The notes under the pieces were generated by a model that had not been told where the DNA came from, ran no database searches, and worked only from the letters and a program-made list of their open reading frames with translations. A program made the position numbers and the translations under genes. 32,663 nucleotides of DNA, from NCBI GenBank assembly GCA_040755715.1, contig JBFLXN010000006.1:1-32663 (forward strand), written 5' to 3'. This DNA comes from JBFLXN01 sp040755715 [NCBI: Candidatus Edwardsbacteria bacterium]. Its GTDB lineage: Bacteria; Edwardsbacteria; AC1; JBFLXN01. Shown one piece after another: positions 4,226-28,071 of this stretch; position 1 is the first letter of the stretch, and the number at the start of each line of letters is the position of its first letter.

Positions 4226-4295
4226 ATCCCAATAACCAAGCACCAATCACCAAATAAACTTTTTGGTTATTGGAATTTGGTGATTGGTTATTTTC
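4226..4295. repeat. Inverted word repeat, 7-nt period (TTGGTTA/TTGGTGA)
   Basis: The right half reads in 7-nt words TTGGTTA, TTGGAAT, TTGGTGA, TTGGTTA. The left half is the complement (ATAACCA, AGCACCA, ATCACCA), so the transcript could fold into one long imperfect hairpin between pilN and pilO. This is the clearest palindromic member of the 7-nt class. Confidence 0.8.
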
Positions 4296-4306
4296 CATTA
4301 TACCTC

Positions 4307-4948
4307 CTACTGTTTCTGGGCCACTGGTGTGATTGCAGAAGGCGTGGCTGGTGGTATTGTCACACTGGCGGTGATGACAAATTTTTCTACTTCTCTTCCT
4401 TCTACCTCTCCTTTTTGCAAGACAGAGAGTTCAACATTAGAAAACCAAGGTGATTCTTCAAGTCTATCCATAAAATCAGCCACAATCAATTTAGAGAATG
4501 TGATTCCTTCTAAGGAAAGGGCTCCATTATTTTCGGTGAGTGAAGTCAGCCAGAGATGTTCCGAGAGGCAAGAGATTATTTCATCTAAGATATGGGCTTC
4601 GTAAAAACGATTTCTATCAAGATTTTCAATTACTCCTAATTTCTTTTTCACTTCTTCCTGCATCTTTTTGTAATTTTCTACCAATTTCTTTGCCTCCTGA
4701 AGGCTAGCCAATTCTTTTCTTTCACTCTCAAGTTTTTTCCTGAGATTAGCCCGAGTGGTCTGTTGAGAGAGATAGGTCATCACGACTATTACCAGCACCA
4801 AGGCGAAGACAACAAGGGCTATGACCATTCCTAGGTGAAATGGAATTTTAGGCAAGGCGAAGGTTATTTTCTTTTTTGCTTTAGGAGGTCTTATTCCTAT
4901 GGGGACTTTTACCTTTTTTCTTTCTCGCAAAAGGTCTATATCTATCAT
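4307..4948 (-). CDS. pilN: Type IV pilus assembly protein PilN
   Basis: This 213-residue protein begins MIDIDLLRERKKVKV, a variant of the INLLP motif that docks PilN into the PilM groove. One TM helix follows (about 40-62, IALVVFALVLVIVVMTYL), then a lysine/glutamate-rich coiled coil (about 66-105) and a periplasmic alpha/beta domain containing LTSLTENNGALSLEGITFS, the usual PilN fold pattern. The C terminus ends in a short Pro/Thr tail. It lies 3 nt after the pilM stop with GGAGGTGA as ribosome site, indicating tight co-translation. Confidence 0.92.
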   Translation of the reverse strand: MIDIDLLRERKKVKVPIGIRPPKAKKKITFALPKIPFHLGMVIALVVFALVLVIVVMTYLSQQTTRANLRKKLESERKELASLQEAKKLVENYKKMQEEVKKKLGVIENLDRNRFYEAHILDEIISCLSEHLWLTSLTENNGALSLEGITFSKLIVADFMDRLEESPWFSNVELSVLQKGEVEGREVEKFVITASVTIPPATPSAITPVAQKQ

Positions 4949-4951
4949 TTC

Positions 4952-6001
4952 CTATCTCACCTCCTTCAAACCCAAACCAATAGCCGTGGTTAGTATTGGG
5001 GCTACTCTTTCAGCACCAGTTACCCCAAAGAGGGCTGGGTCAAAACCAATCTTTCGCAGTGGATTAAGGATTTCCACCGGAATGCCGAAATGCTCTTTGA
5101 GAAACTCCTCTACTCCAGGAATGAGGGCACCACCTCCAGAGAGAAATATCCTGCTCATCTTTTCGCTCTCTCCGCTGGCAGAAAGAAAGGAGAGTGTCCG
5201 CTCAATTCCTCCAGCAAAATCCGAAGTGAAGGAACGAATCACTGATTTGGCATTCTCCTGGGTTGTCTCTTTTACTTCTTCCCCCTTCATCAGATTCAGT
5301 GATTGTTCAAATGATAATCCCAAGTTCTTTTGAATCTGTTGGGCACAGCTATTGCCAGCGATTGGAAGGTCACGGGTAAAGGCGGGGATACTATTCTTGA
5401 CAAAGTTGATATTAGTCATATCCGCACCAATGTTAACCAAGGCAATCATTTCTTCTGGGAGTGACTCATAGTTTGTCTCAAAGACATTCTGCATCGCGAA
5501 GACACCACAATCAATCACCACAGGATTCAGGCCAGCCGCCGTAATTAAGTCAACTAGAGTATTAATCGTCTCATTTTTCACCGCTACCAGTAGAACTTCC
5601 ATTTGATTTTCTCCAGCCTCGGGATTGAGGATTTGAAAGTCTAAAGAGACATCAGTGATAGCAAAAGGGACATGCTGTTCGGCTTCCCATTTCATCCTTT
5701 CTCTAGCCTCAGACTCTTTCATTCTTTCCACCATAATCCGTTTGACGATGACGCCTCGCCCGGAAATGGCTGAAACCACATCCCGACATTTAATGTGCTG
5801 AGTCTCAAGCAGATTTTTAATGGCCTCTATCACCAATCCCCGGTCCATAATCTCACCTTCAACAATGGCTTCTGGAGCCAAGGGGGCAATTCCATAGTTG
5901 AGCAATCTGGCACCTTTTTTGTCCTTCTGGATTTCCACCACTTTAATTTGATGCGAACCTATGTCCAAGCCCACGGTAGACTTCTTTTTACCAAATAACA
6001 T
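4952..6001 (-). CDS. pilM: Type IV pilus assembly ATPase-like PilM
   Basis: A cytoplasmic actin-like protein of 349 residues. Visible motifs are phosphate-1 (VGLDIGSHQIKVVEI, about 9-23), the SHS2-type subdomain (residues about 60-130), phosphate-2 (ALVNIGADMTNINFV) and the adenosine motif (FLSGGGALIPGVEEFL). It binds nucleotide and the N terminus of PilN, forming the cytoplasmic ring of the alignment complex. AAAGGAGGG lies just before the ATG. It is the second gene after the operon promoter, 31 nt downstream of the small HTH gene. Length and motif order are normal. Confidence 0.95.
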   Translation of the reverse strand: MLFGKKKSTVGLDIGSHQIKVVEIQKDKKGARLLNYGIAPLAPEAIVEGEIMDRGLVIEAIKNLLETQHIKCRDVVSAISGRGVIVKRIMVERMKESEARERMKWEAEQHVPFAITDVSLDFQILNPEAGENQMEVLLVAVKNETINTLVDLITAAGLNPVVIDCGVFAMQNVFETNYESLPEEMIALVNIGADMTNINFVKNSIPAFTRDLPIAGNSCAQQIQKNLGLSFEQSLNLMKGEEVKETTQENAKSVIRSFTSDFAGGIERTLSFLSASGESEKMSRIFLSGGGALIPGVEEFLKEHFGIPVEILNPLRKIGFDPALFGVTGAERVAPILTTAIGLGLKEVR

Positions 6002-6032
6002 TTTCCCTCCTTTTTACCCCATTATAAGGGGG

Positions 6033-6218
6033 TCACTCTCCAATAAATTTTTGAATCTCTGTGCCTTTAATGTGCCAGCGTCGCCCAATCTTCTTGCCGC
6101 TCAGTTTCTTTTCGCGCAAGTGCTTTCGGACTGTCTGCTCAGTCACGGCTAAAATCCTGGAAGTTTCATTAACAGTGTAGAGTTTATTTGAATCAATTTC
6201 TCTCGGTGATAATGGCAT
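6033..6218 (-). CDS. Small excisionase-like / MerR-type helix-turn-helix protein
   Basis: This 61-residue protein has the HTH_17/excisionase pattern: LYTVNETSRILAVTEQTVRK (recognition helix), then a wing KKLSGKKIGRRWHIKGTEIQKF. GGAGGAATTG provides the ribosome site. As first gene of the pilus operon, 31 nt before pilM and directly behind the promoter, it may be an operon-specific DNA-binding regulator rather than a phage excisionase; no integrase is nearby. The fold is clear; the regulatory role is inferred from position. Confidence 0.8.
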   Translation of the reverse strand: MPLSPREIDSNKLYTVNETSRILAVTEQTVRKHLREKKLSGKKIGRRWHIKGTEIQKFIGE

Positions 6219-6244
6219 TTTTCAATTCCTCCATCCTTGATTGG

Positions 6245-6375
6245 ATTCTGTAATTCGCACAGTTCGCTGGAAATCTATAGATTACGCTGAAACTATAATT
6301 TACCTTCTTTTCTGCCTAAATCTCTGCGGACATGCGGACATTTTGCGTAATCTATGTTTCTAATCTCTGAATAGA
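6245..6375. repeat. Degenerate repeat with inverted ends in the pil operon 5' leader
   Basis: ATAGATTACGC near 6277-6287 and GCGTAATCTAT near 6344-6354 are inverted copies enclosing about 55 bp. GCGGACAT is repeated at an 8-nt spacing between them. It lies between the promoter at 6427-6456 and the first gene, so it would be part of a roughly 200-nt mRNA leader. Confidence 0.6.
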
Positions 6376-6426
6376 TGCGAATAAGATATTTTGTAGATAA
6401 TTATATATAGTTTGCTATTTTGTTAA

Positions 6427-6456
6427 ATTTTAACAGTTTTTTTAATCCTTTGTCAA
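6427..6456 (-). promoter_or_regulatory. Sigma-70 promoter for the HTH-pilMNOPQ operon
   Basis: Reading the minus strand, TTGACA (6456-6451) is followed after 18 bp by TAAAAT (6432-6427), immediately preceded by TGT, an extended -10. Transcription should start near 6420, leaving a leader of about 200 nt. Confidence 0.75.
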
Positions 6457-6572
6457 GAAAAAAATGCATATTTTTAAAAAAAATTTTAGCCACAGATATT
6501 TAGCCATAGTAGCGAAAATTTTTCTCTGTGAGACTCTGTTATCTTCCATGTTCCCCATGGTTAATTTTTTTC

Positions 6573-6601
6573 TTGACAAAATTTTAGAAAAGGTGTATAA
6601 T
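6573..6601 (+). promoter_or_regulatory. Consensus sigma-70 promoter for mntA-hepT
   Basis: TTGACA (6573-6578), a 17-bp spacer and TATAAT (6596-6601) match the full consensus. Start of transcription is expected near 6608, only about 3 nt before the ATG at 6611, so the message looks leaderless. The 114 bp between this promoter and the divergent pil promoter contain AT-rich DNA and repeated CTCTGTGAG/ACTCTGTTA words. Confidence 0.85.
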
Positions 6602-6610
6602 TTTATCAAA

Positions 6611-7042
6611 ATGCAAGAGCGGTTCAAAGCAAAACTACAAACATATTTTGCGGCAAGAGAAGATGTTTTGGCCGTCTATCTTTTTGGTTCAAGAAGCAAG
6701 GGGGATTTTTCTCCATTGAGCGATTTAGATATTGGGATTCTTCTTCGGGAAGCTCCCCCGCTAGATAGAATTTTTGAAACAGAATTTTGTTTTTTCTCAG
6801 AGATTTCTTCACTTCTTGGAATAAGAGACATTGACATTGTTATCGCTAACACTGCTTCACTTCTTCTCCGACACGAAATAGTTAAATATGGTAAACTCAT
6901 TTATGAAAGAGATAAAGAAGCACGCTGTGATTTTGAGGTTCTCTCAGAATTAAAATACTATGACACTGAACCACTCCGTCAACTTCTGACCCAGACAATG
7001 ATTGAAAGACTGAAGAAAGGAGAATTTGGTGTTAGAAAATAG
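6611..7042 (+). CDS. mntA: MntA-type nucleotidyltransferase antitoxin
   Basis: A 143-residue minimal nucleotidyltransferase. GSRSKGDFSPLSDLDIGILL holds the GS...DxD metal-binding motif, and the third acidic residue lies in IRDIDIVIANTA. In characterised HepT-MntA pairs the MntA enzyme adds AMP groups to a tyrosine of HepT and so neutralises it. Start ATG 6611 is chosen because the promoter lies inside any longer frame; there is no ribosome site, consistent with leaderless translation. The 3' end overlaps hepT by 14 nt, typical of this two-gene module. Confidence 0.88.
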   Translation: MQERFKAKLQTYFAAREDVLAVYLFGSRSKGDFSPLSDLDIGILLREAPPLDRIFETEFCFFSEISSLLGIRDIDIVIANTASLLLRHEIVKYGKLIYERDKEARCDFEVLSELKYYDTEPLRQLLTQTMIERLKKGEFGVRK

Positions 7043-7496
7043 AATTATTGAGGAACTTCTGAAATTGATTAATCAAGCGGTTTCTAATTTGAGAATAAAG
7101 CAAAAAATTGATTTGGAAGAATATTTGAAAAATTGGGAGGTACAGGACATTGTTGAAAGAGAATTTCAAAAGGCAATTCAAGCTTGCATTGATATTGGCG
7201 CCAGAATTATTGCGATGAGAAATTTAGCGAGAGCAGATGACTATCACCAGGTCTTTGAGGTTCTCCTGAACGAAAGGATTCTCTCAAAAAAAATGGCTCA
7301 AGAAATGAAGAAAATGGTAGGATTTAGAAATGCTTTAGTGCATGAATATAGACATATTCGTCCAGAAGAAGTTTATCGTCATCTTAAGGAGAGTCTGGGA
7401 ATTTTTGAGGAATTTGCAAGAGAGATTGTAGGAACTAAAAAGGAGGTGATGAATAAGAAAACGCTAGACGCCAAACGCTTAAAGCGTAGAGCGTGA
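7029..7496 (+). CDS. hepT: HepT-type HEPN ribonuclease toxin (DUF86)
   Basis: This all-helical HEPN protein of 155 residues has the RX4-6HXY catalytic motif as RNALVHEY (near residue 98), the RNase site and AMPylation tyrosine of the DUF86/HepT family. GTG 7029 is preferred over TTG 7026 because GGAG lies 6 nt before it. HepT cleaves RNA and is held inactive by MntA. The last 15 residues (MNKKTLDAKRLKRRA) are outside the family and encoded by a 7-nt word repeat preceded by a strong AAGGAGGTGATG. That may be the start region of a lost downstream gene, now fused in frame to hepT. Confidence 0.88.
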   Translation: MLENRIIEELLKLINQAVSNLRIKQKIDLEEYLKNWEVQDIVEREFQKAIQACIDIGARIIAMRNLARADDYHQVFEVLLNERILSKKMAQEMKKMVGFRNALVHEYRHIRPEEVYRHLKESLGIFEEFAREIVGTKKEVMNKKTLDAKRLKRRA

Positions 7497-7510
7497 AGCG
7501 TAACGCGTAT
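7461..7510. repeat. 7-nt word repeat (CGCTAGA/AGCGTGA) at the hepT 3' end
   Basis: Seven consecutive 7-nt words: CGCTAGA, CGCCAAA, CGCTTAA, then AGCGTAG, AGCGTGA, AGCGTAA, CGCGTAT. The first half is roughly complementary to the second, giving a hairpin. It encodes the basic C-terminal tail of HepT and the stop codon. Confidence 0.8.
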
Positions 7511-7560
7511 CTCAGTGGCAGGGTTGAACAGAATTTCAAATCCTAAGGAGGAAAGAATCA

Positions 7561-8112
7561 ATGAAAAAACAAAAAAAAAGCAAGCACAGATTACACAGAT
7601 TAAAAATATTAGAATCTGTGAAAATCTGTGTTAATCTGTGGTTCCCTATTTTGTTTGTAGCCATAGCGGGATTGGGACTCTGGGGTTGTAGTTCACTGAC
7701 GCCAACACCAGATGTGAGAGTGGTAGGAATTACCTCGGATACGCCCTTGAGTATCTCGGTTTCTGATACTACCAAAGATTATACGGTGACTCTGCAATTT
7801 GTTTCAATGAACAAAGTAGATGCGATTATCACTCAAGATTGGGCGAGTTTCTATAGAAATGCCGATGGGACTGGTCTTCTCTATAATGAGACACCCCGAG
7901 CTATTTCCTTTTTCATTACCGGAACGGATACTGTCCAGATGAAACTTGAGTATACCCGCTCAGTTATCGCCGGTTTCTATAAGTATATGACTGCTAATGG
8001 AATCTCTCAGATGAACTGCAAGTGGAATTTTTATGGAGAGGACGCCTACGGCTACAAGAAAACTTTTTATGTTGAGACCCCGAGAAATTATTGGATAAAC
8101 TTTCACTTTTAG
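7561..8112 (+). CDS. Small lipoprotein of unknown function
   Basis: A 183-residue protein with AAGGAGG before its ATG and a lipobox GLGLWGC (Cys about 44) after a long basic N region. The mature part is beta-rich (DVRVVGITSDTPLSISVSD ... TVQMKLEYTR) and resembles an Ig-like fold; I do not recognise a family. The n-region and half of the hydrophobic segment (HRLHRLKILESVKICVNLWF) are encoded by a CACAGATTA repeat at 7585-7641, so this signal peptide is repeat-derived. It is followed 55 nt later by another lipoprotein gene and may share its message. Confidence 0.75.
   Translation: MKKQKKSKHRLHRLKILESVKICVNLWFPILFVAIAGLGLWGCSSLTPTPDVRVVGITSDTPLSISVSDTTKDYTVTLQFVSMNKVDAIITQDWASFYRNADGTGLLYNETPRAISFFITGTDTVQMKLEYTRSVIAGFYKYMTANGISQMNCKWNFYGEDAYGYKKTFYVETPRNYWINFHF
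7585..7641. repeat. 9-nt word repeat (CACAGATTA/AATCTGTG) inside a signal peptide
   Basis: Two CACAGATTA words are followed by complementary AATCTGTG words (three copies at about 9-nt spacing) and GGTTCC. The same element, including the flank GGTTCC(C/T)TATTTTGTTT, recurs inverted at 19040-19090, and a variant occurs at 22494-22565. The two arms can pair into a hairpin. Confidence 0.85.
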
Positions 8113-8167
8113 TTTACTGGGGGGAAATAAGTGCTCTAAAAAAGTCTTGCTAAATAAGGAGGTAGAG

Positions 8168-11155: not shown

Positions 11156-11169
11156 AAAAGAACAAATAA

Positions 11170-11207: not shown

Positions 11208-11340
11208 TTTTATAATTAGAATCTTCTCTCCTAGAAGTGGGTCATAGGACACGCACTGATAATCCTAACCCAATCCTCATGGTCAGCCTGCGAAGATGAC
11301 CAGCAGTTGATTCAATTCTTCACAGCACAAAGGATGCGGT

Positions 11341-11574: not shown

Positions 11575-11578
11575 GGTC

Positions 11579-12752: not shown

Positions 12753-15700
12753 TCACCTTAATAGAATCATCTTCTTCGTATCGCTGAAATCACCAACTTG
12801 CAACCGATAGAAATACACGCCTCTCGCTACCAGCTTTCCACTCTCATCTGTGCCATCCCAGATTACTCGCTGTTCGCTGTTCGCTATTCGCTGTTCATCA
12901 ACTAAGGTTTTCACCAATTGTCCAGCAATGTTGTAGATTTTCAAACTAACATGGCTGATGGCTCGTGGCTCGTGGCTCATAGCGGATAGCGAATAGCGGA
13001 TAGCGGTTTGTGAAGAGAACGGATTCGGCTGATTCTGATATAACTTACTATGAACTATGAACTTTGAACTATGAACTGAAGTTTCTTCTACCATTGTGGT
13101 TGCGGTATCTGCTACATTCTTCTTGAAATAAATCTCCGGATTGCCGTCCCTTTCATCAAACCAAACAATATAGACTGAATCTGCCCTAGCCGCAATCGCC
13201 GCATACTCCGATATTCCTTCTGCAGAAGAAATTCTTAACGGAGAACCCCAATTTTGTCCGTAGTCAGTAGAATATTTGTAAAAGATTTCGTCTCCCTCCC
13301 TATAAACAAGATGTAAATAACTTCCACTAATTGTCACTGAAGGGAAGTAACATTGAAGCAAAGTCTGAGTGAGATTGACTTCAGGATTGAAGGACACTCC
13401 ACCGTCAATTGACTTAGCATAATAAATGTCATAGTTCCCCAGACGATTCTCATGCCAGAAGAGATGCACATTATTCCCTCCTGCGACAATGGAAGGATAC
13501 GCTGAGACTGAATCATTCAGGGTTATTCTAATATCCGAAGACCAGGTTAATCCCCCATCAGTTGAACGTTTATAGTAGATTTCAAAATTGGCATCACGTT
13601 CGTCAAACCAGACAAGATGCAGAGTATCACCAGTTACCGTTAGAGATGGGAAATACGAAGACGCCGGATTATTAGTCAGCTGTGTATCAGGACTCCAGGT
13701 GGTTCCGCCATTCACAGACCTCTTGTAGAAGATTTCATAGTTGCCAGTTCTATTATTGTGAAAAACGAGATGTAAGGTATCACCAAAGACAGCTAGCGAA
13801 GGACTACCACAATCAGTTGTCAGATTAGTCAAACTGGTGTCCGAAGACCAGGTAGAACCAAAATCTGTGGAATATTTGAAGAACAAATTGTAGGAGCCGC
13901 TTATCTCCTGACACCAAACCAAGAAAAATTTTCCCTGAGCACCTGCAATTACTGGGAAGATAGAGGGTAAAGCATCATAGGTTACTCTTGTCTCTGGTTC
14001 CCAGTCTTCTCCTTTGTCCCAAGACCTCAAGAAATAGACTTCGTAGTTACTATCCCTATTATCATAGAAGACTATCCCTAGGATAGAATCTTCTTGCACC
14101 ATCACTTTACCATTATTCCAGGAGAGATAAGAGGCAAAGGAGTCGTTGGTCAATCTAACATCATCACCCCAGACTGATTTTGTCTGGAAGGACAATCTTT
14201 GTTTAGGTTTCCCCTTTTTTGCTGATTCAAAGGCACCAATATCAGGTGCCAAACCGATGTAAGGCAGACCGACATCTGTTCCCGCATCAATACAGGAACT
14301 ACCGGCAGAAAGATAATAGGTGGGCGTGTATAAAGGGTCTGCACTAATATCAGAGACACCTGGCGTAACCGTGTAACCACCTGTTCCGTAAGTGTAGTTG
14401 TTCACTGTGCTATTCCAGACATCGTTATAATCTGAACTGATATAGCCTGCTCCGTCACACCAACCAAAACCATATTTGTTATTGGTGAGATTATTATTCA
14501 CCGTATAAATCGTCCCTGAGAGTTGGTTGGCATGGATTCCGGCATCAAGGTTTAAATCAAAAGTATTGTTATAGAGGCTACAAGCACTAGAGGTAATCAC
14601 ATCTATCCCGAACATATTATTGACAGAGAGATTTTGATAGAATCCACAGTTAGATGAAAGTTCCAGTAGAAGTCCGCAATCGTTCATATTTCGGACATCA
14701 TTTCCAGATACTCTAACATTGGTGGCGTTGTAGACCCAAATTCCCTCAAAGGGCCAAGTTGCTCCTGCTCCCGGTGAGATTCTGTTGTTAATAATTCTGC
14801 TCTGGGAACTTGATTCAAAAAGAATGCCATATCCACCATCAGGCACTGAAATGACATTATTCTGGCACAATATATCAGATGTCCCATAATAGTAGATGCC
14901 AACTATAGCATCATTAATCGTGAAGCCTGAAATCTCTACATAGTTGCCCAGGCTATCTAAGAAGCCGTAAGTAAGTCCTAAGCCATCAATTACCGGAGTC
15001 TGACCGATTTCATTTCTGAAGAATGTAGGGTATTCAGCACTTCCGGTTTGAATGTCGGTAATCTTGTTTTCGCCAGGATAATTGCCATTTCTCACAATAC
15101 AGCCGTCTGAGCCGACCATCAGTTCTATGGCTCGCTGGATTGTCTTAAATGGTGAATCCGCCCGGCCAAAATTGGTCAAATCATCGCCAGTTAGCTCTTC
15201 CACATAATAGTCCTTAAAATAGAGTATGGTCACATCATGGAGGACAGGAGTAGCATTGGTGGTAGTTTTTAGATATGCTTTATACTTAATATATCTATCA
15301 CCATAATGTCCTGACCAGATAGGAGTATTTGTGGTAGTATAAAAAGTTGCTGGCGTTCCATCGGGACCGACGAAATTCCAGGTGGCGTTATCTTCATTGC
15401 TGGCTATTTGAAATTTAACTTCTGTTCCTGGCGGAATCGTAGCATTAAAGAAGAATTTGCACCATCTGGGCTCACCCCATTGATTGGCATCAAAGGTAGA
15501 AGAAATCAAATTCCCTGAATCTACAAATGCTTGAAAATAAACTTGAAGATAGGGGTGAAACCGCCATCGGGCTTCATTGTTATTGAAATTAGAAGAACGG
15601 AAATTCTTCCGATAGTTAGTAGCGGTCCCTCCTTCTGGAGAGGAAATCAAGAGAAAACCATAATTGGGATAGGTATTTTGATACCAGCCCTGAACATATT

Positions 15701-16694
15701 CGCTGGTAGTCCATCTCTTCCAGCCATTAGAATTTGTCGTAATGGAATCAGTGACGGTAGCAGTAAAAGTAGGTTGAAGATTCCAGGTAATGGTAGATTC
15801 ATCCCAAGAAGAAGTCACTCGCCGGCACTGAATGGTCAGGTTGTTGGCGGCTGCCTGAGCATTTTGATACAAGTTTAAAAAAGCACTATCAACTGCACCA
15901 ATAGTAGGCAATGAAGAGATGTCAAACTCAAGGTAACTTCGTCTTATTCTGTTAGTCCGGCGTTCTACGGATAAGGCAACATTTGTGCCATAGTTGGTCG
16001 TTGGATTGTTCTGGTCAACATAGGCATCTTTCCCCAAGGTAGGACCCGGCTGAAATATTTGAAGTGTGGCAGAGCTATTATAGACTTTGAAACCAAAGTC
16101 TGTAGCCGTGCCTGTCCAAGATGAACCTCCGTTATTTGAGGTGCATCTCCGTCCATTAGGATAGATATCAGCATTCCAATAATACACCTGATAGCAATTG
16201 CCAGCATCTCCACCTGTGGTGTAGACGACAAACGAATATTTGGTGTTGGCTAAGAGATATGGGGGAGTAGGGAATGAAAAATCATATTCTCCAATGCTGG
16301 TAGTAATATCACTCCTTTGAGCAGTAGCGTAGACTGTTGTTCCGGGCAGGTCAGTTCCCAAGCAATCCCTTATTCCCAGGTATAATGGATTCGGAGGACT
16401 GCCGACTTTCTGGCAGTAGATGCTTATTTTGGTGACATAGCCGGATTTTGTATTCAGAAAAGTCTGCGCTGCCCAGTTGACATCGAATATGTTATTGGTA
16501 TTTTGAATCGCCAACTGGTATTGGTCTATGCCAGCAAATTTTAGGAGAGTGACATCGTCAGGACTTATTCTCGTATCTACATTGATACCTATGCCACTTT
16601 CAAAATCAGACTGGGTAGTTTGAACCCAAGTAGCGCCTCTGATGCTTTGAGTCAAACCAATAATGAAGAAAAAGGCAAAGATAAAGCGCTGCAT
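12753..16694 (-). CDS. Secreted multidomain protein: DNRLRE, beta-helix, BNR repeats, C-terminal sorting domain
   Basis: A 1313-residue exported protein; ATG 16694 follows GGAGGA. Signal peptide about 1-21 (FAFFFIIGLTQSIRG). A DNRLRE-type domain (about 220-395: DAYVDQNNPTTNYGTNVAL ... RSYLEFDISSLP) is followed by a right-handed parallel beta-helix (about 510-840, ending DIGAFESAKKG). Five or more BNR/sialidase-like repeats come next (about 860-1200: YKRSxDGGxTWSxDxxLT). The end is a FlgD-like Ig/sorting domain (LYQNQPNPFSSQTAIRYSL ... VYFYRLQVGD ... KKMILLR). The architecture fits a polysaccharide-binding or adhesive surface protein exported by a T9SS-like route. Three loops of the last domain are encoded by inserted 7-nt repeats. 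The 5' end is duplicated at 19124-19150. Confidence 0.85.
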   Translation of the reverse strand: MQRFIFAFFFIIGLTQSIRGATWVQTTQSDFESGIGINVDTRISPDDVTLLKFAGIDQYQLAIQNTNNIFDVNWAAQTFLNTKSGYVTKISIYCQKVGSPPNPLYLGIRDCLGTDLPGTTVYATAQRSDITTSIGEYDFSFPTPPYLLANTKYSFVVYTTGGDAGNCYQVYYWNADIYPNGRRCTSNNGGSSWTGTATDFGFKVYNSSATLQIFQPGPTLGKDAYVDQNNPTTNYGTNVALSVERRTNRIRRSYLEFDISSLPTIGAVDSAFLNLYQNAQAAANNLTIQCRRVTSSWDESTITWNLQPTFTATVTDSITTNSNGWKRWTTSEYVQGWYQNTYPNYGFLLISSPEGGTATNYRKNFRSSNFNNNEARWRFHPYLQVYFQAFVDSGNLISSTFDANQWGEPRWCKFFFNATIPPGTEVKFQIASNEDNATWNFVGPDGTPATFYTTTNTPIWSGHYGDRYIKYKAYLKTTTNATPVLHDVTILYFKDYYVEELTGDDLTNFGRADSPFKTIQRAIELMVGSDGCIVRNGNYPGENKITDIQTGSAEYPTFFRNEIGQTPVIDGLGLTYGFLDSLGNYVEISGFTINDAIVGIYYYGTSDILCQNNVISVPDGGYGILFESSSQSRIINNRISPGAGATWPFEGIWVYNATNVRVSGNDVRNMNDCGLLLELSSNCGFYQNLSVNNMFGIDVITSSACSLYNNTFDLNLDAGIHANQLSGTIYTVNNNLTNNKYGFGWCDGAGYISSDYNDVWNSTVNNYTYGTGGYTVTPGVSDISADPLYTPTYYLSAGSSCIDAGTDVGLPYIGLAPDIGAFESAKKGKPKQRLSFQTKSVWGDDVRLTNDSFASYLSWNNGKVMVQEDSILGIVFYDNRDSNYEVYFLRSWDKGEDWEPETRVTYDALPSIFPVIAGAQGKFFLVWCQEISGSYNLFFKYSTDFGSTWSSDTSLTNLTTDCGSPSLAVFGDTLHLVFHNNRTGNYEIFYKRSVNGGTTWSPDTQLTNNPASSYFPSLTVTGDTLHLVWFDERDANFEIYYKRSTDGGLTWSSDIRITLNDSVSAYPSIVAGGNNVHLFWHENRLGNYDIYYAKSIDGGVSFNPEVNLTQTLLQCYFPSVTISGSYLHLVYREGDEIFYKYSTDYGQNWGSPLRISSAEGISEYAAIAARADSVYIVWFDERDGNPEIYFKKNVADTATTMVEETSVHSSKFIVHSKLYQNQPNPFSSQTAIRYSLSAMSHEPRAISHVSLKIYNIAGQLVKTLVDEQRIANSEQRVIWDGTDESGKLVARGVYFYRLQVGDFSDTKKMILLR
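12865..12900. repeat. In-gene 7-nt word repeat (GAACAGC/GAATAGC), sorting domain loop 3
   Basis: On the coding strand the words GAACAGC, GAATAGC, GAACAGC, GAACAGC follow each other exactly, encoding EQRIANSEQR, a 7-residue peptide repeat. In related C-terminal domains this place usually reads like E..AGxHxVxWDG, so the repeat occupies a variable loop before VIWDGTDESGK. Confidence 0.85.
12952..13006. repeat. In-gene 7-nt word repeat (CGCTATC/AGCCACG), sorting domain loop 2
   Basis: Eight 7-nt words on the coding strand (CGCTATC, CGCTATT, CGCTATC, CGCTATG, AGCCACG, AGCCACG, AGCCATC, AGCCATG) encode RYSLSAMSHEPRAISH between two beta strands of the FlgD-like domain. Confidence 0.85.
13042..13079. 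repeat. In-gene 7-nt word repeat (AGTTCAT/AGTTCAA), before the QNQPNPF motif
   Basis: Words AGTTCAT, AGTTCAA, AGTTCAT, AGTTCAT on the coding strand encode SVHSSKFIVHSKL immediately before YQNQPNPF, the conserved start of the C-terminal domain. Confidence 0.85.
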
Positions 16695-17034
16695 TGTTTT
16701 GTCCTCCTTTCCTCTCACTATTTCTTCTCCCCGCCGTGTAAAGGTGAGGAAGCAAAAAGTAGCCTATCCCCTTTTGCCTGCTACAGTTTCCTTCAGCTTC
16801 TCAGTCAGCCAGACATTGATGAGAGTTTCGGTAGATATACCCTGTTTATGAGCCAAGTCAGTCAGTTTTTTCGCCAGCTGCGGTTCTAACGATGTTAGAA
16901 ACATACGCCGTTGGATGTCCACTTCAAAGTGTGCTTCTTTTGTCAAATCCCAATAATCAGTCAAATCGTGGCTGTCCCAGAACTCGCCTGCTTCTTCAAT
17001 GCTTTTAAAGTGTTTCGGAATCGGGTCTCGATTC
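16665..17034. repeat. 370-bp direct duplication, copy 1
   Basis: Contains the first bases of the secreted-protein gene, its ribosome site and all but the first few codons of the CopG antitoxin gene. The second copy, in the same orientation, is at 19124-19490. Only scattered base changes are seen, and the antitoxin protein differs at a single residue near its C terminus. Confidence 0.9.
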
Positions 17035-20923: not shown

Positions 20924-21162
20924 TTTTAGACTACCTCCAAATTTTTGGTTCTTTTTTAAAATTTTGTTAGAGTTTGGTTATTGGTGGTCCGTTTTTTTCT
21001 CTTGACATTAATACCGCACATCTTTTATTTTTATAGTGCGACACAGGCTCTTATCTATATAAAACGGCATAATTGTTGATAAATTATTTGTTGATATTTC
21101 AATGAAAAAATAGTATAATCCTCAAAAAAGCGTGAAAATGTTCAGTTAAATTGAAAAAAATA

Positions 21163-21230
21163 TTGTAAAATCAAGCCTTTTGTGCTATAATTGAATTGTA
21201 TCACAAAGCGTACTTATAGTACGGTTTGTG
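21163..21230 (+). promoter_or_regulatory. Promoter with extended -10 and 5' hairpin inside the IS
   Basis: TTGTAA (21163-21168), 17 bp, then TATAAT (21186-21191) preceded by TGC. The transcript would start near 21198, right at the hairpin CACAAA..GTACT TAT AGTAC..TTTGTG (21202-21230). A leader of about 270 nt then separates it from the transposase frame. Within the leader only a 22-codon frame from 21243 is seen, without a ribosome site. Confidence 0.55.
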
Positions 21231-21472
21231 AACTAAATTCAAATGGGGAGGAAACATCCTTTCTGCTATGCCAAAAGGCTTGAAAAACCTGCTTTGGAGG
21301 AATGGTTCTAATTCAGCGTTTTTGCCATAAACTAAAACTGCGATGGTTACTCCAAAACCAGATAAAAATTCGTGAACGCAATGCCGATTATTACTCATCC
21401 GACTTAATTCTCTATCAATTTAAAACTGCTTTTTTGAAGATAGACAAATTGAAAATTTAAAAAAATTCGTTT

Positions 21473-21904
21473 TTGCAAGTAGTCTCTTTAATGGCTTTCA
21501 GTATTCTCAAGGGTCTTCAGCTACCAGAAATAGTAAAAATACTTAATGTTGGACAGATGAGTGTTTATAGATGGATTAGTTGTTACAATGAATCTGGTGT
21601 AGAGAGACTTTTTGAAGGAAAACATACCGGTCGTCCACCGCTTTTGGATAAAGACCGACTTTCCAGATTGGAGGAAATTTTGGACAGTGGTCCAGTTGCT
21701 TATGGATTCCAACAAGGTATATGGACATGTCCAACTGTTCAACATGTCATTGAAGCAGAATTCAATATAATTTATCATCATGACCATGTTCGTAAGATTC
21801 TTCATAAATTAGGTTTCTCTGTTCAAGATCCTCGTAAAAAATTGGCACTTGCTGATGAAAATTTACAACAAAAGTGGATAAGAGAAACCTATCCAGTTTT
21901 TTAA
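21473..21904 (+). CDS. IS630-family transposase, frame A (DNA-binding part)
   Basis: This frame encodes the N-terminal helix-turn-helix part of the transposase: LQLPEIVKILNVGQMSVYRW then ISCYNESGVERLFEGKHTGR and a second HTH (VQHVIEAEFNIIYHHDHVRK). It ends in ...YPVF followed by TAA at a run of six T and six A. The start is uncertain (TTG 21473); further upstream another frame reads DRQIENLKKFVFASSLFNG, which looks like the true N terminus, so a second frameshift near 21480-21490 is likely. Confidence 0.8.
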   Translation: MQVVSLMAFSILKGLQLPEIVKILNVGQMSVYRWISCYNESGVERLFEGKHTGRPPLLDKDRLSRLEEILDSGPVAYGFQQGIWTCPTVQHVIEAEFNIIYHHDHVRKILHKLGFSVQDPRKKLALADENLQQKWIRETYPVF

Positions 21905-22439
21905 AAAACTTCATCGGGAAAAAGGAATTCTTATGTTTGAAGATGAAGCTGCTTTTAGACAAGAGCCAACTATGCATAGGACCTGGGCAAGAATAGGACA
22001 ACAACCTCAAATATTCACATATGGAAAAAGAAATACTCAACATGTATTCGGTGCAATTGCAATATATCTTATGAAATTTTTCTATCAATTTGCTGAAACT
22101 TGTAATGCTATAACATATTTTAAGTTTTTGGAGTATATTGTAAAGAAAATTTATCCAAGTAAAATATTTCTTGTTAAAGATAACGCTCGGTATCATAAAG
22201 AGGAACAAATAAAATTATGGTGTAAAGATAACAAAAGATATATTGAGTGCTGGTTTCTTCCACCATATTCTCCGGAACTTAATCCTATGGAACCTATCTG
22301 GAAATATACAAGAAAACAAGGAACTCATAATCGTTTTTTCGGTAATACAGATGAACTTAAACATTCTATTAAAACCGTATTTAAAAGCATTAACCGTTCT
22401 CCATCGGCAATACAAAATTATATTTTACCATATAAATAA
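21903..22439 (+). CDS. IS630-family transposase, frame B (DDE catalytic part)
   Basis: It continues from KKLHREKGILMFEDEAAFRQ and contains all three catalytic acids: D in FEDEAAF, D in KDNARYH and E in LPPYSPELNPMEPIWKYTRK. It has a good internal ATG at 21933 but no ribosome site. Joining frame A to frame B needs +1 slippage at TTTTTT_AA (21897-21904) or slippage of RNA polymerase in the T6A6 run. Either programmed frameshifting or an inactivating 1-nt change would explain the sequence. Confidence 0.85.
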   Translation, partial: KKLHREKGILMFEDEAAFRQEPTMHRTWARIGQQPQIFTYGKRNTQHVFGAIAIYLMKFFYQFAETCNAITYFKFLEYIVKKIYPSKIFLVKDNARYHKEEQIKLWCKDNKRYIECWFLPPYSPELNPMEPIWKYTRKQGTHNRFFGNTDELKHSIKTVFKSINRSPSAIQNYILPYK

Positions 22440-22484
22440 TTTATCAACAATTGTGCCGTTTCATATAGTTTTTTTCCCCCCCCC

Positions 22485-22672
22485 TCAAAAAGCCTCTGAA
22501 ACCACAGATTATCCGCCACACCAACGGCGGATGGCGACTGGCGGACACAGATTTTCACAGATTATTTAAAAAGGTAATTAGGTAATTAAGTCATTAATAA
22601 GTAGTGCTTACTTATTCAATCTTTCCAATGACCAATTACCCAGTGACTCAATGACTCAATAACTCAATTTGG
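22485..22672. repeat. Composite repeat block: CACAGATTA type plus 8-nt ACTCAATG type
   Basis: 22494-22565 is an ACCACAGATTA...CACAGATTAT element interrupted by a TCCGCCA ... TGGCGGA palindrome (an insert within a repeat). From 22570, GGTAATTA/AAGTCATT words and their complements follow, ending in three exact 8-nt words TGACTCAA, TGACTCAA, TAACTCAA. No gene is visible between the IS end (22465) and the pilin gene stop (22757). Confidence 0.75.
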
Positions 22673-22756
22673 TGTTTATCTGTGTCAATCTGCCTGTCCG
22701 TGTGCTCTGCTTCCCGACACAACGGCCAGGGTGGTTAATGAATTTTTCACCAGGAA

Positions 22757-25867: not shown

Positions 25868-25961
25868 GGTCTTTTCTCCTTTTTTCAATATTTCATTTGG
25901 TTCTTCTCTATTTTCCCTTTATTGTCAAAAATTTATGTTACAATGCACTAAAATCTGCTTA

Positions 25962-26426
25962 CTATTTATTAGAGGCTATGTAAGTCCGCAATTGCACGCT
26001 ATCTGAGCGAGGAGCAATCCACTTCACAGTCACCGAAACTCGCTTCATATTTGGCATTGGAATACTGTCCTCAACTCTATAATATCTCTGAAATTTCTCA
26101 ACTTGTTCAGGTGTTGGTGTAATCGCACCCCCAGCTGGTGGATGGTAGCCCTTATTTAGCTCCACATGAGTATATGGGAGAGTCTTTATGTATTCCATTC
26201 TCTGCTGGGCTAATTCAATTCCCCGCGTAAGAGTTCTTGCCTGCTCACCACTCCTACTGCCCAAGGGCATCAGCCCAGCAATGGCTAAGATTCCAATTGC
26301 CAACAGGGTGATTGCAACCAAGAGTTCAATCAAGGTAAAGCCCCTTTTATTCGCTATTCGCTTTTTGCTTTTTGCTTTCAGTTTTCGGCTTTCAGTTTTT
26401 GGCTTTCGGTTTTTTTGCGTAGACAT
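25962..26426 (-). CDS. PilV-like minor prepilin
   Basis: A 154-residue protein; ATG 26426 has GGAGG 8 nt upstream. The cleavage site is KRG/FTLIELLVAITLLAIGIL with Glu+5, the class III signal cut by PilD. GLMPLGSRSGEQARTLTRGI and LAQQRMEYIKTLPY are typical of PilV. The leader has 29 residues instead of the usual 6-15 and is encoded by a 7-nt repeat (26346-26419). Together with fimT and pilW it forms the pilus-priming minor pilin set. A 94-bp gap to pilW holds AT-rich DNA only. Confidence 0.88.
   Translation of the reverse strand: MSTQKNRKPKTESRKLKAKSKKRIANKRGFTLIELLVAITLLAIGILAIAGLMPLGSRSGEQARTLTRGIELAQQRMEYIKTLPYTHVELNKGYHPPAGGAITPTPEQVEKFQRYYRVEDSIPMPNMKRVSVTVKWIAPRSDSVQLRTYIASNK
26346..26419. 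repeat. 7-nt word repeat encoding the PilV leader peptide
   Basis: Coding-strand words CGAAAGC, CAAAAAC, TGAAAGC, CGAAAAC, TGAAAGC, AAAAAGC, AAAAAGC, GAATAGC, GAATAAA follow without a break for nine units. They give NRKPKTESRKLKAKSKKRIA then NK, directly before the RG/F prepilin cleavage site. Confidence 0.9.
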
Positions 26427-26443
26427 ATTCAAAACCTCCCCTT

Positions 26444-26920
26444 CTATCTTGTGGTAACCATTCCTGCCATCCCAACAAATACACTGTCTACCAGTCCCTT
26501 GGTATTCCTTAAGCCCACATACCCTCCTCGCACTACACTACCATTTGCCCTAAAAATGACAGTGTCAGCGTCACCAAATGCAGCTCCTGTGATAGTGATA
26601 CCTACAGGAAGCCGTTTTGTAGTTATTTGTGCAGTTGCCAAATTCGCAATTCTATAATGATTTGGGGCTGGTTGATTAAACTGGACAGAAAAATTATTTC
26701 CTTCAGTGATAGCCTTCTGTCTGCATAGTCTTAAGTCGCCGAGGATCTGTCTCCTCGCACTACTTAGCCTGTAATTTGGCAACTGGCTAATAAGTGAAGG
26801 CACGGCAAACGCCATCGTTATCCCTATAATCGTAATCACTACCAAAAGTTCAATCAGGGTAAAACCTCTTTTATTCGCTTTCTGCTCTTCGCTTTCAGCG
26901 TTCAGTTTTCGGCTTTTCAT
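26444..26920 (-). CDS. FimT/GspH-like minor prepilin
   Basis: A 158-residue protein; GGAGGGAG precedes the ATG. Cleavage site KRG/FTLIELLVVITIIGITM, followed by the GspH/FimT pattern YRLSSARRQILGDLRLCRQK AITEGNNFSVQF and a beta-rich C terminus (ITGAAFGDADTVIFRANGSV). The 19-residue leader (MKSRKLNAESEEQKANKRG) is encoded by seven 7-nt words such as TGAAAGC and GAAGAGC (26872-26918) and has the same GAATAAAAG junction as pilV. It lies 18 nt upstream of pilV. Confidence 0.88.
   Translation of the reverse strand: MKSRKLNAESEEQKANKRGFTLIELLVVITIIGITMAFAVPSLISQLPNYRLSSARRQILGDLRLCRQKAITEGNNFSVQFNQPAPNHYRIANLATAQITTKRLPVGITITGAAFGDADTVIFRANGSVVRGGYVGLRNTKGLVDSVFVGMAGMVTTR
26872..26918. repeat. 7-nt word repeat encoding the FimT leader peptide
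   Basis: Words CGAAAAC, TGAACGC, TGAAAGC, GAAGAGC, AGAAAGC, GAATAAA are consecutive on the coding strand. Same word family and same end point as in the PilV leader, but a different order of words. Confidence 0.88.
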
Positions 26921-26944
26921 TTTCTCCCTCCATAATTTTTTACT

Positions 26945-26950
26945 GTTATA
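26945..26950 (-). promoter_or_regulatory. Possible internal -10 (TGATATAAC) upstream of fimT
   Basis: The minus strand has TGA followed by TATAAC, an extended -10, about 25 nt before the fimT start. There is no convincing -35. It could give basal expression independent of the sigma-54 promoter. Confidence 0.25.
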
Positions 26951-27000
26951 TCAAAATTTCACCACGGAAATACAGGGAAAAATCACTTTATGACTCTCTT

Positions 27001-27153
27001 TTATTCCCACCTTACTGTGATTACGAGATAATTTTTATTTTCTTGTATATATACAACTTTAATCTTTCCTTGCTTAAAAGACTTGTAAGCCAAAAGGCGG
27101 TTTTCATATCCAAGTCCAACTTTTTCAGGTTCATTTAATGCTTTCTCTACCAT
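27001..27153 (-). CDS. DUF4258-like small protein, possibly 5'-truncated
   Basis: A 50-residue protein: MVEKALNEPEKVGLGYENRL, LAYKSFKQGKIKVVYIQENK, NYLVITVRWE. This resembles the C-terminal two thirds of DUF4258 proteins (small BECR-fold, often toxins), whose usual N-terminal HxxxR helix is absent. The ATG lies inside the end of the upstream coiled-coil gene (23-nt overlap) with only a poor ribosome site, so it may be a remnant. The family call is tentative. Confidence 0.45.
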   Translation of the reverse strand: MVEKALNEPEKVGLGYENRLLAYKSFKQGKIKVVYIQENKNYLVITVRWE

Positions 27154-27433
27154 ATTTTTTGCCTTTTAAGCAACTTTCAATGAGTGCCCGGGTGTTTCTT
27201 TCTTCGGAAACAACGAGTTCTGCGAACTTATTGTTTTCAGCAACAATGAGCTCGGAGATCTTAGTCAGAGTATTGTCCATTTTCTTAAACCCTTCATCCA
27301 TTCTTTCCCCTAGATGCTTCATCTCTGTCCCCAATTGTTTTATCTGTCTTCCATTCTGCACAAATATTACGGTGAGGGCCACCGAAAGAAATGCCCCCAT
27401 TATTGTAAATATCACCTGAAATACCAAATTCAT
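27131..27433 (-). CDS. Small TM plus coiled-coil protein, first gene behind the sigma-54 promoter
   Basis: About 100 residues; ATG 27433 has GGAGGGG just upstream. One TM helix (VIFTIMGAFLSVALTVIFV) is followed by a coiled coil (NGRQIKQLGTEMKHLGERMD, then EGFKKMDNTLTKISELIVAE). Architecture matches 18452-18811. It is the first gene after the -24/-12 promoter and precedes DUF4258-like, fimT, pilV and pilW in the same direction. Function unknown; a role in pilus biogenesis is possible only by position. Confidence 0.6.
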   Translation of the reverse strand: MNLVFQVIFTIMGAFLSVALTVIFVQNGRQIKQLGTEMKHLGERMDEGFKKMDNTLTKISELIVAENNKFAELVVSEERNTRALIESCLKGKKYGRESIK

Positions 27434-27456
27434 TTTCCCCTCCACTTATTTTTTAT

Positions 27457-27473
27457 AGCAATTTCTATGCCAG
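27457..27473 (-). promoter_or_regulatory. Sigma-54 (-24/-12) promoter before the minor-pilin cluster
   Basis: The minus strand reads CTGGCATAGAAATTGCT. Against the consensus YTGGCACGRNNNTTGCW only two bases differ (C to T, G to A); GG and GC are exactly spaced. With C as -12, transcription starts at about 27446, giving a 13-nt leader that contains the GGAGGGG ribosome site of the gene at 27433. A sigma-54 activator is encoded 640 bp upstream. Confidence 0.7.
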
Positions 27474-27553
27474 AATGATAGTTTATAGTTTAAAAGCTAA
27501 AAAGTTGAGAGGATAGAAATTATAACTTGCGAATGTTCAAATACTTATCAATT

Positions 27554-27612
27554 TCCCAGTCTCCGATTCCCCAACTTTCGAACTCCCCAGCTCTCTAACT
27601 CTCTAACTTTAA
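27554..27612. repeat. 8-nt word repeat (CTCTCTAA type)
   Basis: Seven successive 8-nt words: CCCAGTCT, CCGATTCC, CCAACTTT, CGAACTCC, CCAGCTCT, CTAACTCT, CTAACTTT. It lies upstream of the sigma-54 promoter, where activator sites would be expected. Nearby 27652-27685 has GCGGAAT words at 7-nt spacing, and GTGTGACTACAC (about 27632) is a near-palindrome. Confidence 0.7.
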
Positions 27613-27688
27613 CTTGTTACCTTTGGGTAATAGGTGTGACTACACAATAATAATGCGGAATGTTGATTGCGGAATGCGGAATTCGTTT

Positions 27689-28041
27689 CTAAGTCCTGCG
27701 AGCGGTTTTTATGGATGTAACTACAATTGCGATAATCTCGTTGGCTTCGTCCATTAGTTGTTGAATTTGATTTTGGCCCACTAATTTTGCTTCAACCAGT
27801 AACTCTAACCAATAAAGTGTTTCATCGGCTTCTTCTTCAACGATGCCCATCTTTGAAATAAAATCAGCTTTTGACCTCGCTCTGCACTCAGAGAACGATA
27901 ATTGGCACCGACAGATGTCCCCGAGCGCAGGATTTGTCCGCCTAATACATCAGCAATACGAGTTCTAGGAAGGCTCTCTGCTAACTTAATTATTTCAATA
28001 GCAAATCTCTTTGTCCTGTCCCTTAAGTCCTTATTTCTCAT
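27689..28041 (-). pseudogene. S23 four-helix-bundle protein with a frameshift
   Basis: It starts MRNKDLRDRTKRFAIEIIKL, then AESLPRTRIADVLGGQILRS and GTSVGANYR, the clear first two helices of the IVP/S23 four-helix-bundle family. Just after NYR the frame is lost. One base out of phase the protein continues ECRARSKADFISKMGIVEEE, ADETLYWLELLVEAKLVGQN, QIQQLMDEANEIIAIVVTSI, KTARRT to a TAG at 27691-27689. A 1-nt deletion near 27895-27905 explains both halves. The ribosome site GGAGGGAGG is part of a GCATTCC repeat. Function of the family is unclear. Confidence 0.85.
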
Positions 28042-28071
28042 TCCTCCCTCCGCATTCCGCATTCCGCATTT
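28040..28071. repeat. 7-nt word repeat (CCGCATT) supplying a ribosome site
   Basis: On the coding strand ATGCGGA repeats three times and ends in GGAGGGAGGAATG, so the repeat provides both the Shine-Dalgarno sequence and the start region of the S23 gene. It fills the entire gap to the stop of the sigma-54 activator gene. Confidence 0.75.

What the first reader, a model, noticed from the sequence alone, without database searches (positions are those of the whole stretch)
4226..28071. Fixed-period (7, 8 or 9 nt) degenerate word repeats across the window
At least a dozen blocks are built from short words repeated at an exact period while the letters drift: 7 nt at 4226-4295, 7461-7510, 12865-12900, 12952-13006, 13042-13079, 26346-26419, 26872-26918 and 28040-28071; 8 nt at 22640-22670 and 27554-27612; 9 nt at 7585-7641 and 31943-32020. 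Different blocks share no sequence, only the period. Many are palindromic. Ordinary REP or IUP elements are conserved in sequence; here the period seems to be what is kept, suggesting a generating process such as template slippage or a reverse-transcription-like copier. In this window the 8-nt class is found only between genes, while the 7- and 9-nt classes also occur in frame within genes.
Basis: partly seen in the sequence, partly recalled or inferred. Interest (0 to 1): 0.78.

Follow-up and report, generated by a model that had tools for sequence, protein, structure and literature searches.

The report
Selfish gene armed with seven-letter repeats
Runs of a seven-letter DNA word that drifts in spelling but keeps its length turn out to sit, as a mirror-image pair, on both sides of a small bacterial gene of unknown function, which suggests that many of these puzzling repeats are the ends and leftovers of a little-known family of selfish elements.

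Summary
The periodicity is real: 7, 4 and 5 segments at lags 7, 8 and 9 against about 0.2 expected, and 67-115 times more lag-7 arrays than in 632 kb from other bacteria. The window's own genome is not held, so what the arrays are was learned elsewhere. Genes of the four-helix-bundle/23S-rRNA-intervening-sequence family (PF05635, TIGR02436) are flanked by 7-nt, in some lineages 8-nt, arrays: 52 of 59 independent sites have one, 40 have both, and in 34 of those 40 the two are inverted copies (17% when arms are swapped). None of 30 control toxin genes has one. Words vary; the period follows the gene's lineage (5 changes on the tree, shuffled minimum 12). Relatives show empty sites, gene-less hairpins and a 14x7-nt copy difference. 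The window holds one such element, its gene frameshifted (27652-28070); its other 7- and 8-nt arrays are assigned by analogy. Heptamer excess and slippage were known; the gene link was in no title or abstract start that my searches listed. The 9-nt class and why 7 remain unexplained.

The parts
27652..28070 (-). Full element: inverted GAATGCG heptad arrays flanking a four-helix-bundle gene; its upstream arm lies directly after the stop of the sigma-54 activator gene (28072-30312, -)
   Evidence: like anatomy at 40 two-armed of 59 independent sites elsewhere
28030..28070 (+). Upstream arm: period-7 array, CATTCCGC words on + strand (GAATGCG in gene orientation); overlaps the gene's first codons (MRNAEGGMRN)
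   Evidence: (score 16.5)
27652..27682 (+). Downstream arm: period-7 array, AATGCGG words on + strand, inverted copy of the upstream arm
   Evidence: TRF period 7, 4.4 copies; score 9.5, just under the threshold of 10 used elsewhere
27805..28062 (-). First part of a four-helix-bundle gene (TIGR02436 E 6.7e-8, over cut-off; PF05635 E 9e-5, under cut-off); the frame is interrupted and the family sequence goes on in another frame down to about 27689. Intact relatives exist (for example L233, L235)
4229..4287 (.). Gene-less heptad hairpin (CCAATNA / TTATTGG) between pilN (ends 4307) and pilO (starts 4206)
   Evidence: z -4.75
7461..7509 (.). Gene-less heptad hairpin (ACGCTNN / AAGCGTA) over the 3' end of a HepT-like gene
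   Evidence: z -2.6
7585..7640 (.). Gene-less hairpin with 9/10-nt arms (CACAGATTA / AATCTGTG), read through by the start of ORF 7561-8112
   Evidence: z -5.7
22572..22668 (.). Two 8-nt arrays facing each other (AGGTAATT / CCAATNAC) beside a transposase in two ORFs
   Evidence: fold not better than shuffles (z -1.1)
12867..13077 (.). Three heptad arrays (12867-12896 with TTCGCTA, 12951-13006, 13047-13077) inside the C-terminal FlgD_ig region of ORF 12753-16718, read in frame
26348..26413 (.). Solo heptad array encoding the leader of a type IV prepilin-like gene (25962-26432, -)
26872..26918 (.). Weaker heptad array (below my threshold) encoding the leader of a second prepilin-like gene (26444-26920, -); shares a 16-mer with the previous one
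27554..27612 (.). Solo 8-nt array next to the full element
   Evidence: 27583-27608
31939..32046 (.). 9/18-nt array (GTTTATTGA/GTTTGTTGG) followed by an 8-nt array (TTCTTAAG), upstream of a PPIC-type gene; no element link found for 9-nt arrays

Best explanation
The heptad and octad arrays are the terminal inverted arms, and the gene-less leftovers, of a family of small selfish elements. Each full element (about 400-550 bp) carries one gene for a four-helix-bundle protein (23S_rRNA_IVP / S23p / TIGR02436, a homologue of Avd) between two arrays that are inverted copies of each other. The word is free. The period (7, in some lineages 8) is a property of the element lineage. Shown: the association, the inverted arrangement, the lineage-bound period, filled and unfilled sites, gene-less hairpins with the same word in the same genus, and copy-number change in whole units. 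Inferred: the arms pair into a long hairpin; slippage adds and removes whole units, so words drift and are re-homogenised; the protein recognises or stabilises the periodic stem and helps the element spread, possibly at the RNA level, as the ribosomal intervening sequences with the same gene are cut from RNA by RNase III. The window holds one full element with a broken gene (27652-28070). Its other 7- and 8-nt arrays are read as gene-less hairpins and solo arms of the same kind.
For: Distance profile over 70 core PF05635 loci: lag-7 arrays per 150-bp bin from the gene edge are 33,3,4,0,0,3,0,2,1,3 upstream and 40,4,1,2,0,3,2,0,1,0 downstream; lag 8 gives 6 then none upstream, 5 and one far out downstream; lag 9 and the other periods are not enriched. 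54 of 70 loci have a 7- or 8-nt array within 150 bp against 0 of 30 ParE control loci (Fisher 3e-14, related loci not collapsed; the control loci come from another draw of the same phylum, about nine of them from genomes that also have the gene). After collapsing loci with homologous flanks: 121 loci, 59 sites, 52 with an array, 40 with both; of 40 same-period pairs 34 match inverted at all but two letters or better, 11 of 40 match in direct orientation, and swapping arms between sites gives 17% on average, 41% at most. Window-type four-helix genes in viral contigs: 12 of 13 loci. Plasmids of 13 cyanobacteria, one Gemmatimonadota, one Azospirillum: 15 of 15 loci. Period follows the protein tree: 18 of 92 are 8-nt, 5 changes, shuffled mean 16.8, minimum 12 of 1000; five genomes hold both kinds. 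One intergenic site: 18 of 61 genomes carry the whole element; of the other 43, seven were read: six empty, one with a gene-less hairpin of another word. Related element at an unrelated locus: L153 against L154-L156. One word is found in 15 of 19 genomes searched (13 of 16 in the genus), its reversed control in none; of 20 distinct places read, 2 carry the gene, 9 are gene-less opposed pairs, 9 show a single array. 98 nt = 14x7 difference between relatives.
Against: The window's genome and close relatives could not be searched, so only one array pair of the window is tied to the gene; the others are assigned by analogy. No locus with 9-nt arms stood out, so the 9-nt class is not covered. 16 of 70 core loci and 7 of 59 sites have no array. 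Arms do not match unit by unit beyond their shared word (23 pairs, Fisher p 0.996), so continuous pairing or mutual templating is not supported. Array-rich viral loci mostly lack the gene: 1 marginal hit in 58 viral loci scanned, though that profile also missed the window's divergent gene. Genome-level link is weak: 3 of 5 genomes with TTCGCTN x4 have the gene against 51 of 299 (p 0.036, assuming that the genomes are among those); the reversed control pattern was found in 3 of 299 genomes, so that word is not special. No target-site duplication and no transposition event was seen; the protein has no known enzymatic activity.
Confidence: 0.68

Rival explanations
1. Ordinary heptanucleotide simple-sequence repeats: polymerase slippage alone makes and grows the arrays wherever seeds occur; 7 nt is favoured by the polymerase footprint (idea of Mrazek 2007, as reported in PMC4679880). 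The four-helix genes merely land in or tolerate such DNA.
For: Heptamers are reported as the commonest long SSR class in most genomes (PMC4679880 introduction) and over-represented in many (PMC4692102 introduction). Unit-step copy change, unit similarity falling with distance from 0.857 to 0.655 (partly ascertainment), no unit-by-unit arm matching.
Against: Does not predict arrays on both sides of one gene family, inverted, with array-to-array element ends at a site empty in relatives, nor a period that follows the protein tree, nor absence around 30 ParE genes. A sample of Pseudomonadota DNA has 0.16-0.32 lag-7 arrays per 100 kb. A 2025 survey finds no average enrichment of short tandem repeats in bacteria (PMC12699852, passages).
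Confidence: 0.2
2. Selected regulatory hairpins: heptad hairpins are kept as terminators, mRNA stabilisers or protein-binding sites, as proposed for TAACTGA in Beggiatoaceae.
For: Some hairpins sit between operon genes (window 4229-4287). The left arm starts within 10 nt of an upstream stop codon in 11 of 23 measured loci (crude ORF choice). One intergenic hairpin locus aligns over its length in 72 of 81 genomes of a genus (my count); both arms are there in the 19 of 30 loci whose anchors my script found.
Against: The site is empty in six of seven unfilled genomes read; words and copy number vary; eight of 12 window stretches do not fold better than shuffles; at the locus eight genomes show only the two flanks.
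Confidence: 0.1
3. Retro-copying: the element moves through an RNA intermediate, with the Avd-like protein recruiting a reverse transcriptase in trans; slippage of that enzyme on the periodic stem sets the period.
For: Homology of PF05635 to Avd (weak; PMC10053308 passages); genes lie in the sense of both neighbours at 41 of the 66 loci with both neighbours called, against both at 11; ribosomal relatives are transcribed and cut by RNase III (PMC4990558 abstract and introduction).
Against: No RT listed among the 20 window proteins scanned and none looked for in the other loci; no intermediate seen; a same-sense bias also arises from operon structure.
Confidence: 0.12

Closest known systems
Intervening sequences (IVS) of 23S rRNA genes with the S23p/IVP gene
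   Same: Same protein family, one gene, complementary ends that form a stem, similar size (428-444 nt in Coxiella; PMC4990558 abstract and introduction)
   Different: Here outside rRNA genes (20 loci checked with Rfam, no LSU rRNA), arms are 7- or 8-nt arrays, gene-less copies are dispersed; excision by RNase III untested
Heptameric SSRs: cyanobacterial STRRs, TAACTGA (MacGregor 2015), GGGNATC (Rehm 2015)
   Same: 7-nt units, mostly intergenic, indels mostly in 7-nt steps between two Cyanothece strains, scattered distribution (PMC4679880 abstract and sections 3 and 10; PMC4692102 abstract and introduction)
   Different: In what I read these are described word by word and without an associated gene; here the period is general, arms come in inverted pairs and flank a four-helix gene, in Nostoc and Calothrix plasmids too
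REPIN/RAYT
   Same: Small hairpins dispersed in a genome, inverted pairs, one associated gene (PMC3116915 passages)
   Different: RAYT is a Y1-type transposase; here a four-helix bundle with no known catalysis, and the period is kept more than the sequence
Avd of diversity-generating retroelements
   Same: Homologous family (PMC10053308 passages); Xcc0516 (2GSC) is a sequence match to the element protein
   Different: Avd model matched far below its cut-off; RT and template/variable repeats were not searched for outside the window

Membership tests
23S rRNA IVS element | S23p/IVP family gene | tested here: met
   PF05635 / TIGR02436; window gene over the TIGR02436 cut-off, under the Pfam one
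23S rRNA IVS element | complementary ends around the gene | tested here: met
   34 of 40 two-armed sites inverted; window arms 27652-27682 / 28030-28070
23S rRNA IVS element | located inside 23S rRNA | tested here: not met
   no LSU rRNA in 20 loci; window element lies behind a sigma-54 activator gene
23S rRNA IVS element | excised by RNase III | not testable with these tools
   -
Heptameric SSR / STRR | tandem 7-nt units with unit-step copy variation | tested here: met
   window; other genomes; not in the window's lineage
Heptameric SSR / STRR | a described word such as TAACTGA or GGGNATC | tested here: not met
   none of the window's seven lag-7 segments has it
REPIN/RAYT | Y1 tyrosine transposase gene | tested here: not met
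   associated gene is TIGR02436
REPIN/RAYT | gene-less inverted pairs dispersed with the gene's word | tested here: met
Diversity-generating retroelement | reverse transcriptase with TR/VR | tested here: inconclusive
   no RT among 20 window proteins scanned; flanks of other loci not scanned

The most novel reading that the evidence does not exclude
A widespread, undescribed family of bacterial selfish elements is recognised by the period of its hairpin arms and not by their sequence. Its Avd-like four-helix protein reads a 7- or 8-bp step on the stem and recruits a copying enzyme. This family is the source of most heptanucleotide repeats of bacteria, including the cyanobacterial STRRs.
Probability: 0.3. 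Interest if true: 0.93.

Novelty: new variant of a known kind. Interest (0 to 1): 0.8.

Why it matters
Two old loose ends may be one. Why bacteria are rich in seven-letter repeats has been open since the SSR survey of 2007, and the S23p/IVP four-helix protein has no known function (PMC4990558 introduction). If arrays are element ends whose period is set by the protein lineage, then period 7 against 8 becomes a trait that can be mapped, swapped and tested with a protein of about 120 residues and a hairpin. It also warns annotators: peptides read from arrays (MRNAEGGMRN..., prepilin leaders, loops of a sorting-like domain) may be element debris.

Tried and rejected
Conserved word across genomes: 21 of 23 identical-word pairs between contig groups involve the word used to select the contigs, so I see no shared word beyond it. 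A looser count (6 of 7 letters) is above its letter-shuffled null, 131 pairs against a mean of 65 and maximum of 83; it includes variants of the selected word and I did not take it apart. Mutual copying of the two arms unit by unit: not supported. Element inside rRNA: not found in 20 loci. Searches for the window's own lineage led nowhere: plasmids (no match), the CACAGATTA pattern (no match), the transposase (no relative), PilM (one 31% hit in a Moraxellaceae MAG). L001/G001 served only as a door to Pseudomonadota genomes, so most results are from another phylum than the window's (FCB-like by its sorting-like domain and pil genes, an inference). A search for more window-type genes in Pseudomonadota gave 2 of 398 genomes, both already known. 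Literature: ten searches. Of these, some asked for the four-helix/IVS proteins together with repeats, and listed 20 of 2,838, 15 of 28 and 15 of 40 papers; no listed title or abstract start joins them to heptamer arrays. Subscription papers are mostly missing from the library. One search (hairpin elongation by polymerases) found no paper.

Rows dropped before counting: 15 weak or fragmentary PF05635 places (L276-L290) were kept out of the 70; of them 5 have a lag-7/8 array within 250 bp. In one search, 23 of 25 genus places (two are second fragments of genes already counted) and 13 of 14 viral places (one duplicate contig) were used; 15 of 29 plasmid records were fetched. In one search four overlapping viral loci were left out. 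Loci on the minus strand were read in the wrong orientation; one search corrected this (counts changed by a few).
Full report
OBSERVATION. I scanned the window for segments that match themselves at a fixed lag and compared them with 60 dinucleotide-preserving block shuffles. Lag 7 has 7 segments (0.15 expected), lag 8 has 4 (0.22) and lag 9 has 5 (0.18); lags 4, 5, 11 and 13 have none. In 632,200 bases from 40 other Pseudomonadota genomes, lag-7 arrays occur at 0.32 per 100 kb (threshold 10) or 0.16 (threshold 13), and 22 of the 30 arrays at the stricter threshold have a period that is a multiple of three; the window has 21.4 and 18.4 lag-7 arrays per 100 kb.

GENERALITY OF THE PERIOD. Contigs of IMG/VR picked because they hold GAATGCG three times contain 103 lag-7 arrays against 4 at lag 6, 6 at lag 8 and 12 at lag 9 in 282,791 bases (29 stretches). 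About a third of those lag-7 arrays are the selected word itself; the rest carry other words. Arrays within 100 bp of each other are often inverted copies of one word: 10 of 29 pairs match at 6 of 7 or better in inverted orientation, against 5.4% between contigs (pairs from one contig are not independent). Within arrays, unit identity falls with distance from 0.857 to 0.655 (86 arrays), as slippage would give, though arrays were picked by neighbour identity. Variant units are not matched between arms beyond the shared word.

COPY NUMBER IN RELATIVES. Two genomes of one unnamed Pseudomonadota genus (flanks 89-92% identical) differ at one locus by 98 nt, exactly 14 heptads: 16.6 copies against about 2.4.

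THE GENE. In that genus some inverted AGCGAAT arrays enclose about 430 bp that translate as a four-helix-bundle protein. A related element lies at an unrelated locus (L153 against L154-L156: only the element matches, 72-75%), and one genome has the same flanks with one arm and without the gene (L166). I then asked the question the other way round. PF05635 was found in 61 of 398 Pseudomonadota genomes (57 over the cut-off). For 70 core loci, lag-7 arrays pile up in the first 150 bp on either side (33 upstream, 40 downstream) and are rare beyond (0-4 per bin); lag 8 shows the same on a smaller scale (6 and 5); lag 9 and the other periods do not. 54 of 70 loci have a 7- or 8-nt array there. Thirty loci of an unrelated small gene (PF05016, ParE) have none within 1500 bp.

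MORE LINEAGES. Fifteen plasmid loci (13 cyanobacteria, one Gemmatimonadota, one Azospirillum; 15 of the 29 records found) all have a lag-7 or lag-8 array at the gene's edge. Twelve of 13 viral-contig loci of window-type genes do too (29-100% identical to the query). Collapsing loci with homologous flanks leaves 59 sites: 52 with an array, 40 with both arms, 34 of these inverted, 11 of 40 alike in direct orientation; swapping arms between sites gives 17% inverted on average, at most 41%.

PERIOD FOLLOWS THE ELEMENT. Among 92 proteins with arms, 18 have 8-nt arms; the label changes 5 times on the tree, against a shuffled mean of 16.8 and minimum of 12 in 1000 shuffles (support values not used, related loci kept). 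Five genomes (G052, G056, G072, G124, G195) hold both a 7-nt and an 8-nt element. So the period is not a property of the host polymerase alone.

FILLED AND UNFILLED SITES. At one intergenic site, 18 of 61 genomes of the genus have the whole element between the end of one ORF and the start of the next, and the break points of the unfilled genomes lie at the outer end of one array and within about 15 nt of the other. The other 43 genomes show the two flanks as split matches. Of seven of these that I read, six have a short spacer (58-60 nt between my anchors against 457-602 when filled) and one has a gene-less heptad hairpin with another word. One unread genome (G313) looks like an element with its middle deleted, by its match pattern. 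Left arms run from 2.4 to 13.1 units and right arms from 1.9 to 15.7 in the 18, one right arm not detected. The word GTAGGCA is found three times in a row in 15 of 19 genomes searched (13 of 16 known to be of the genus), the reversed control in none; the three genus genomes without it have four-helix genes whose arms carry other words or a variant. Of 20 distinct places that I read, 2 enclose the gene, 9 are gene-less opposed pairs and 9 show a single array (my sorting of 30 returned loci).

THE WINDOW. The gene at 27805-28062 (-) matches TIGR02436 (E 6.7e-8) and has inverted GAATGCG arrays at 28030-28070 and 27652-27682; the upstream arm begins right after the stop of the sigma-54 activator gene. 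Its frame is interrupted; the rest of the family sequence follows in another frame. The hairpins at 4229-4287 (between pilN and pilO), 7461-7509 and 7585-7640, and the solo arrays, resemble the gene-less forms seen elsewhere; for these the assignment is by analogy. Arrays inside the prepilin leaders and the C-terminal sorting-like domain are read in frame.

HOW IT MAY WORK. Shown: anatomy, lineage-bound period, whole-unit copy change, presence and absence at a site. Inferred: the arms form a long periodic stem, slippage keeps the words in flux, and the protein, a relative of the pentameric Xcc0516 (pentamer from PMC4990558 introduction) and of Avd, acts on that stem. The gene runs in the sense of both neighbours at 41 of the 66 loci where both were called, and the left arm starts within 10 nt of the upstream stop codon in 11 of 23 measured loci. 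This would fit spread within transcribed operons, perhaps through RNA, but is no proof.

PRIOR WORK. Heptamer excess, a polymerase-footprint idea and 7-nt indels between strains are in print (PMC4679880: abstract, introduction and the section on cyanobacteria and Bacteroidetes; PMC4692102: abstract and introduction). A broad survey finds no average STR enrichment in bacteria (PMC12699852, passages). IVS elements with complementary ends are in print for rRNA (PMC4990558: abstract and introduction). PMC10053308 (four passages) links PF05635 with Avd. REPIN/RAYT was seen in passages of PMC3116915. No listed title or abstract start in searches 62, 68 and 102 joins four-helix genes with heptamer arrays.

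OPEN. Why 7 and 8; whether 9-nt arrays have a partner; how elements move; the 16 of 70 loci without arrays; and the window's own genome.

Noticed in passing
L355 1483-1851 and L359 1489-1848: On plasmids of Anabaena sp. 90 and Pseudanabaena galeata the four-helix gene lies between cas6 and cas4 of a CRISPR locus (type I-D by cas1d in Anabaena), with very long heptad arms.
   Followed up: partly
window 12753-16718: The C-terminal sorting-like domain of a large beta-helix/BNR protein carries three heptad arrays in frame.
   Followed up: no
window 25962-26432 and 26444-26920: Two neighbouring prepilin-like genes have leader peptides encoded by heptad arrays that share a 16-mer.
   Followed up: no
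window 21473-22439: Transposase split over two ORFs in different frames (HTH part and DDE_3 part; IS630-type by recall), next to two facing 8-nt arrays.
   Followed up: no
window 6464-7496: Nucleotidyltransferase and HepT-like pair; the HepT-like gene ends inside a heptad hairpin.
   Followed up: no
window 31939-32021: 9/18-nt array with alternating units GTTTATTGA/GTTTGTTGG; no four-helix locus with 9-nt arms stood out.
   Followed up: partly
L134 (viral contig): One contig carries 7-, 8-, 9- and 10-nt arrays together, including CAATGACT as in the window.
   Followed up: no
L415: A gene-less heptad hairpin with a different word occupies the same intergenic site where 18 relatives carry a full element, which hints at a preferred site.
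   Followed up: no
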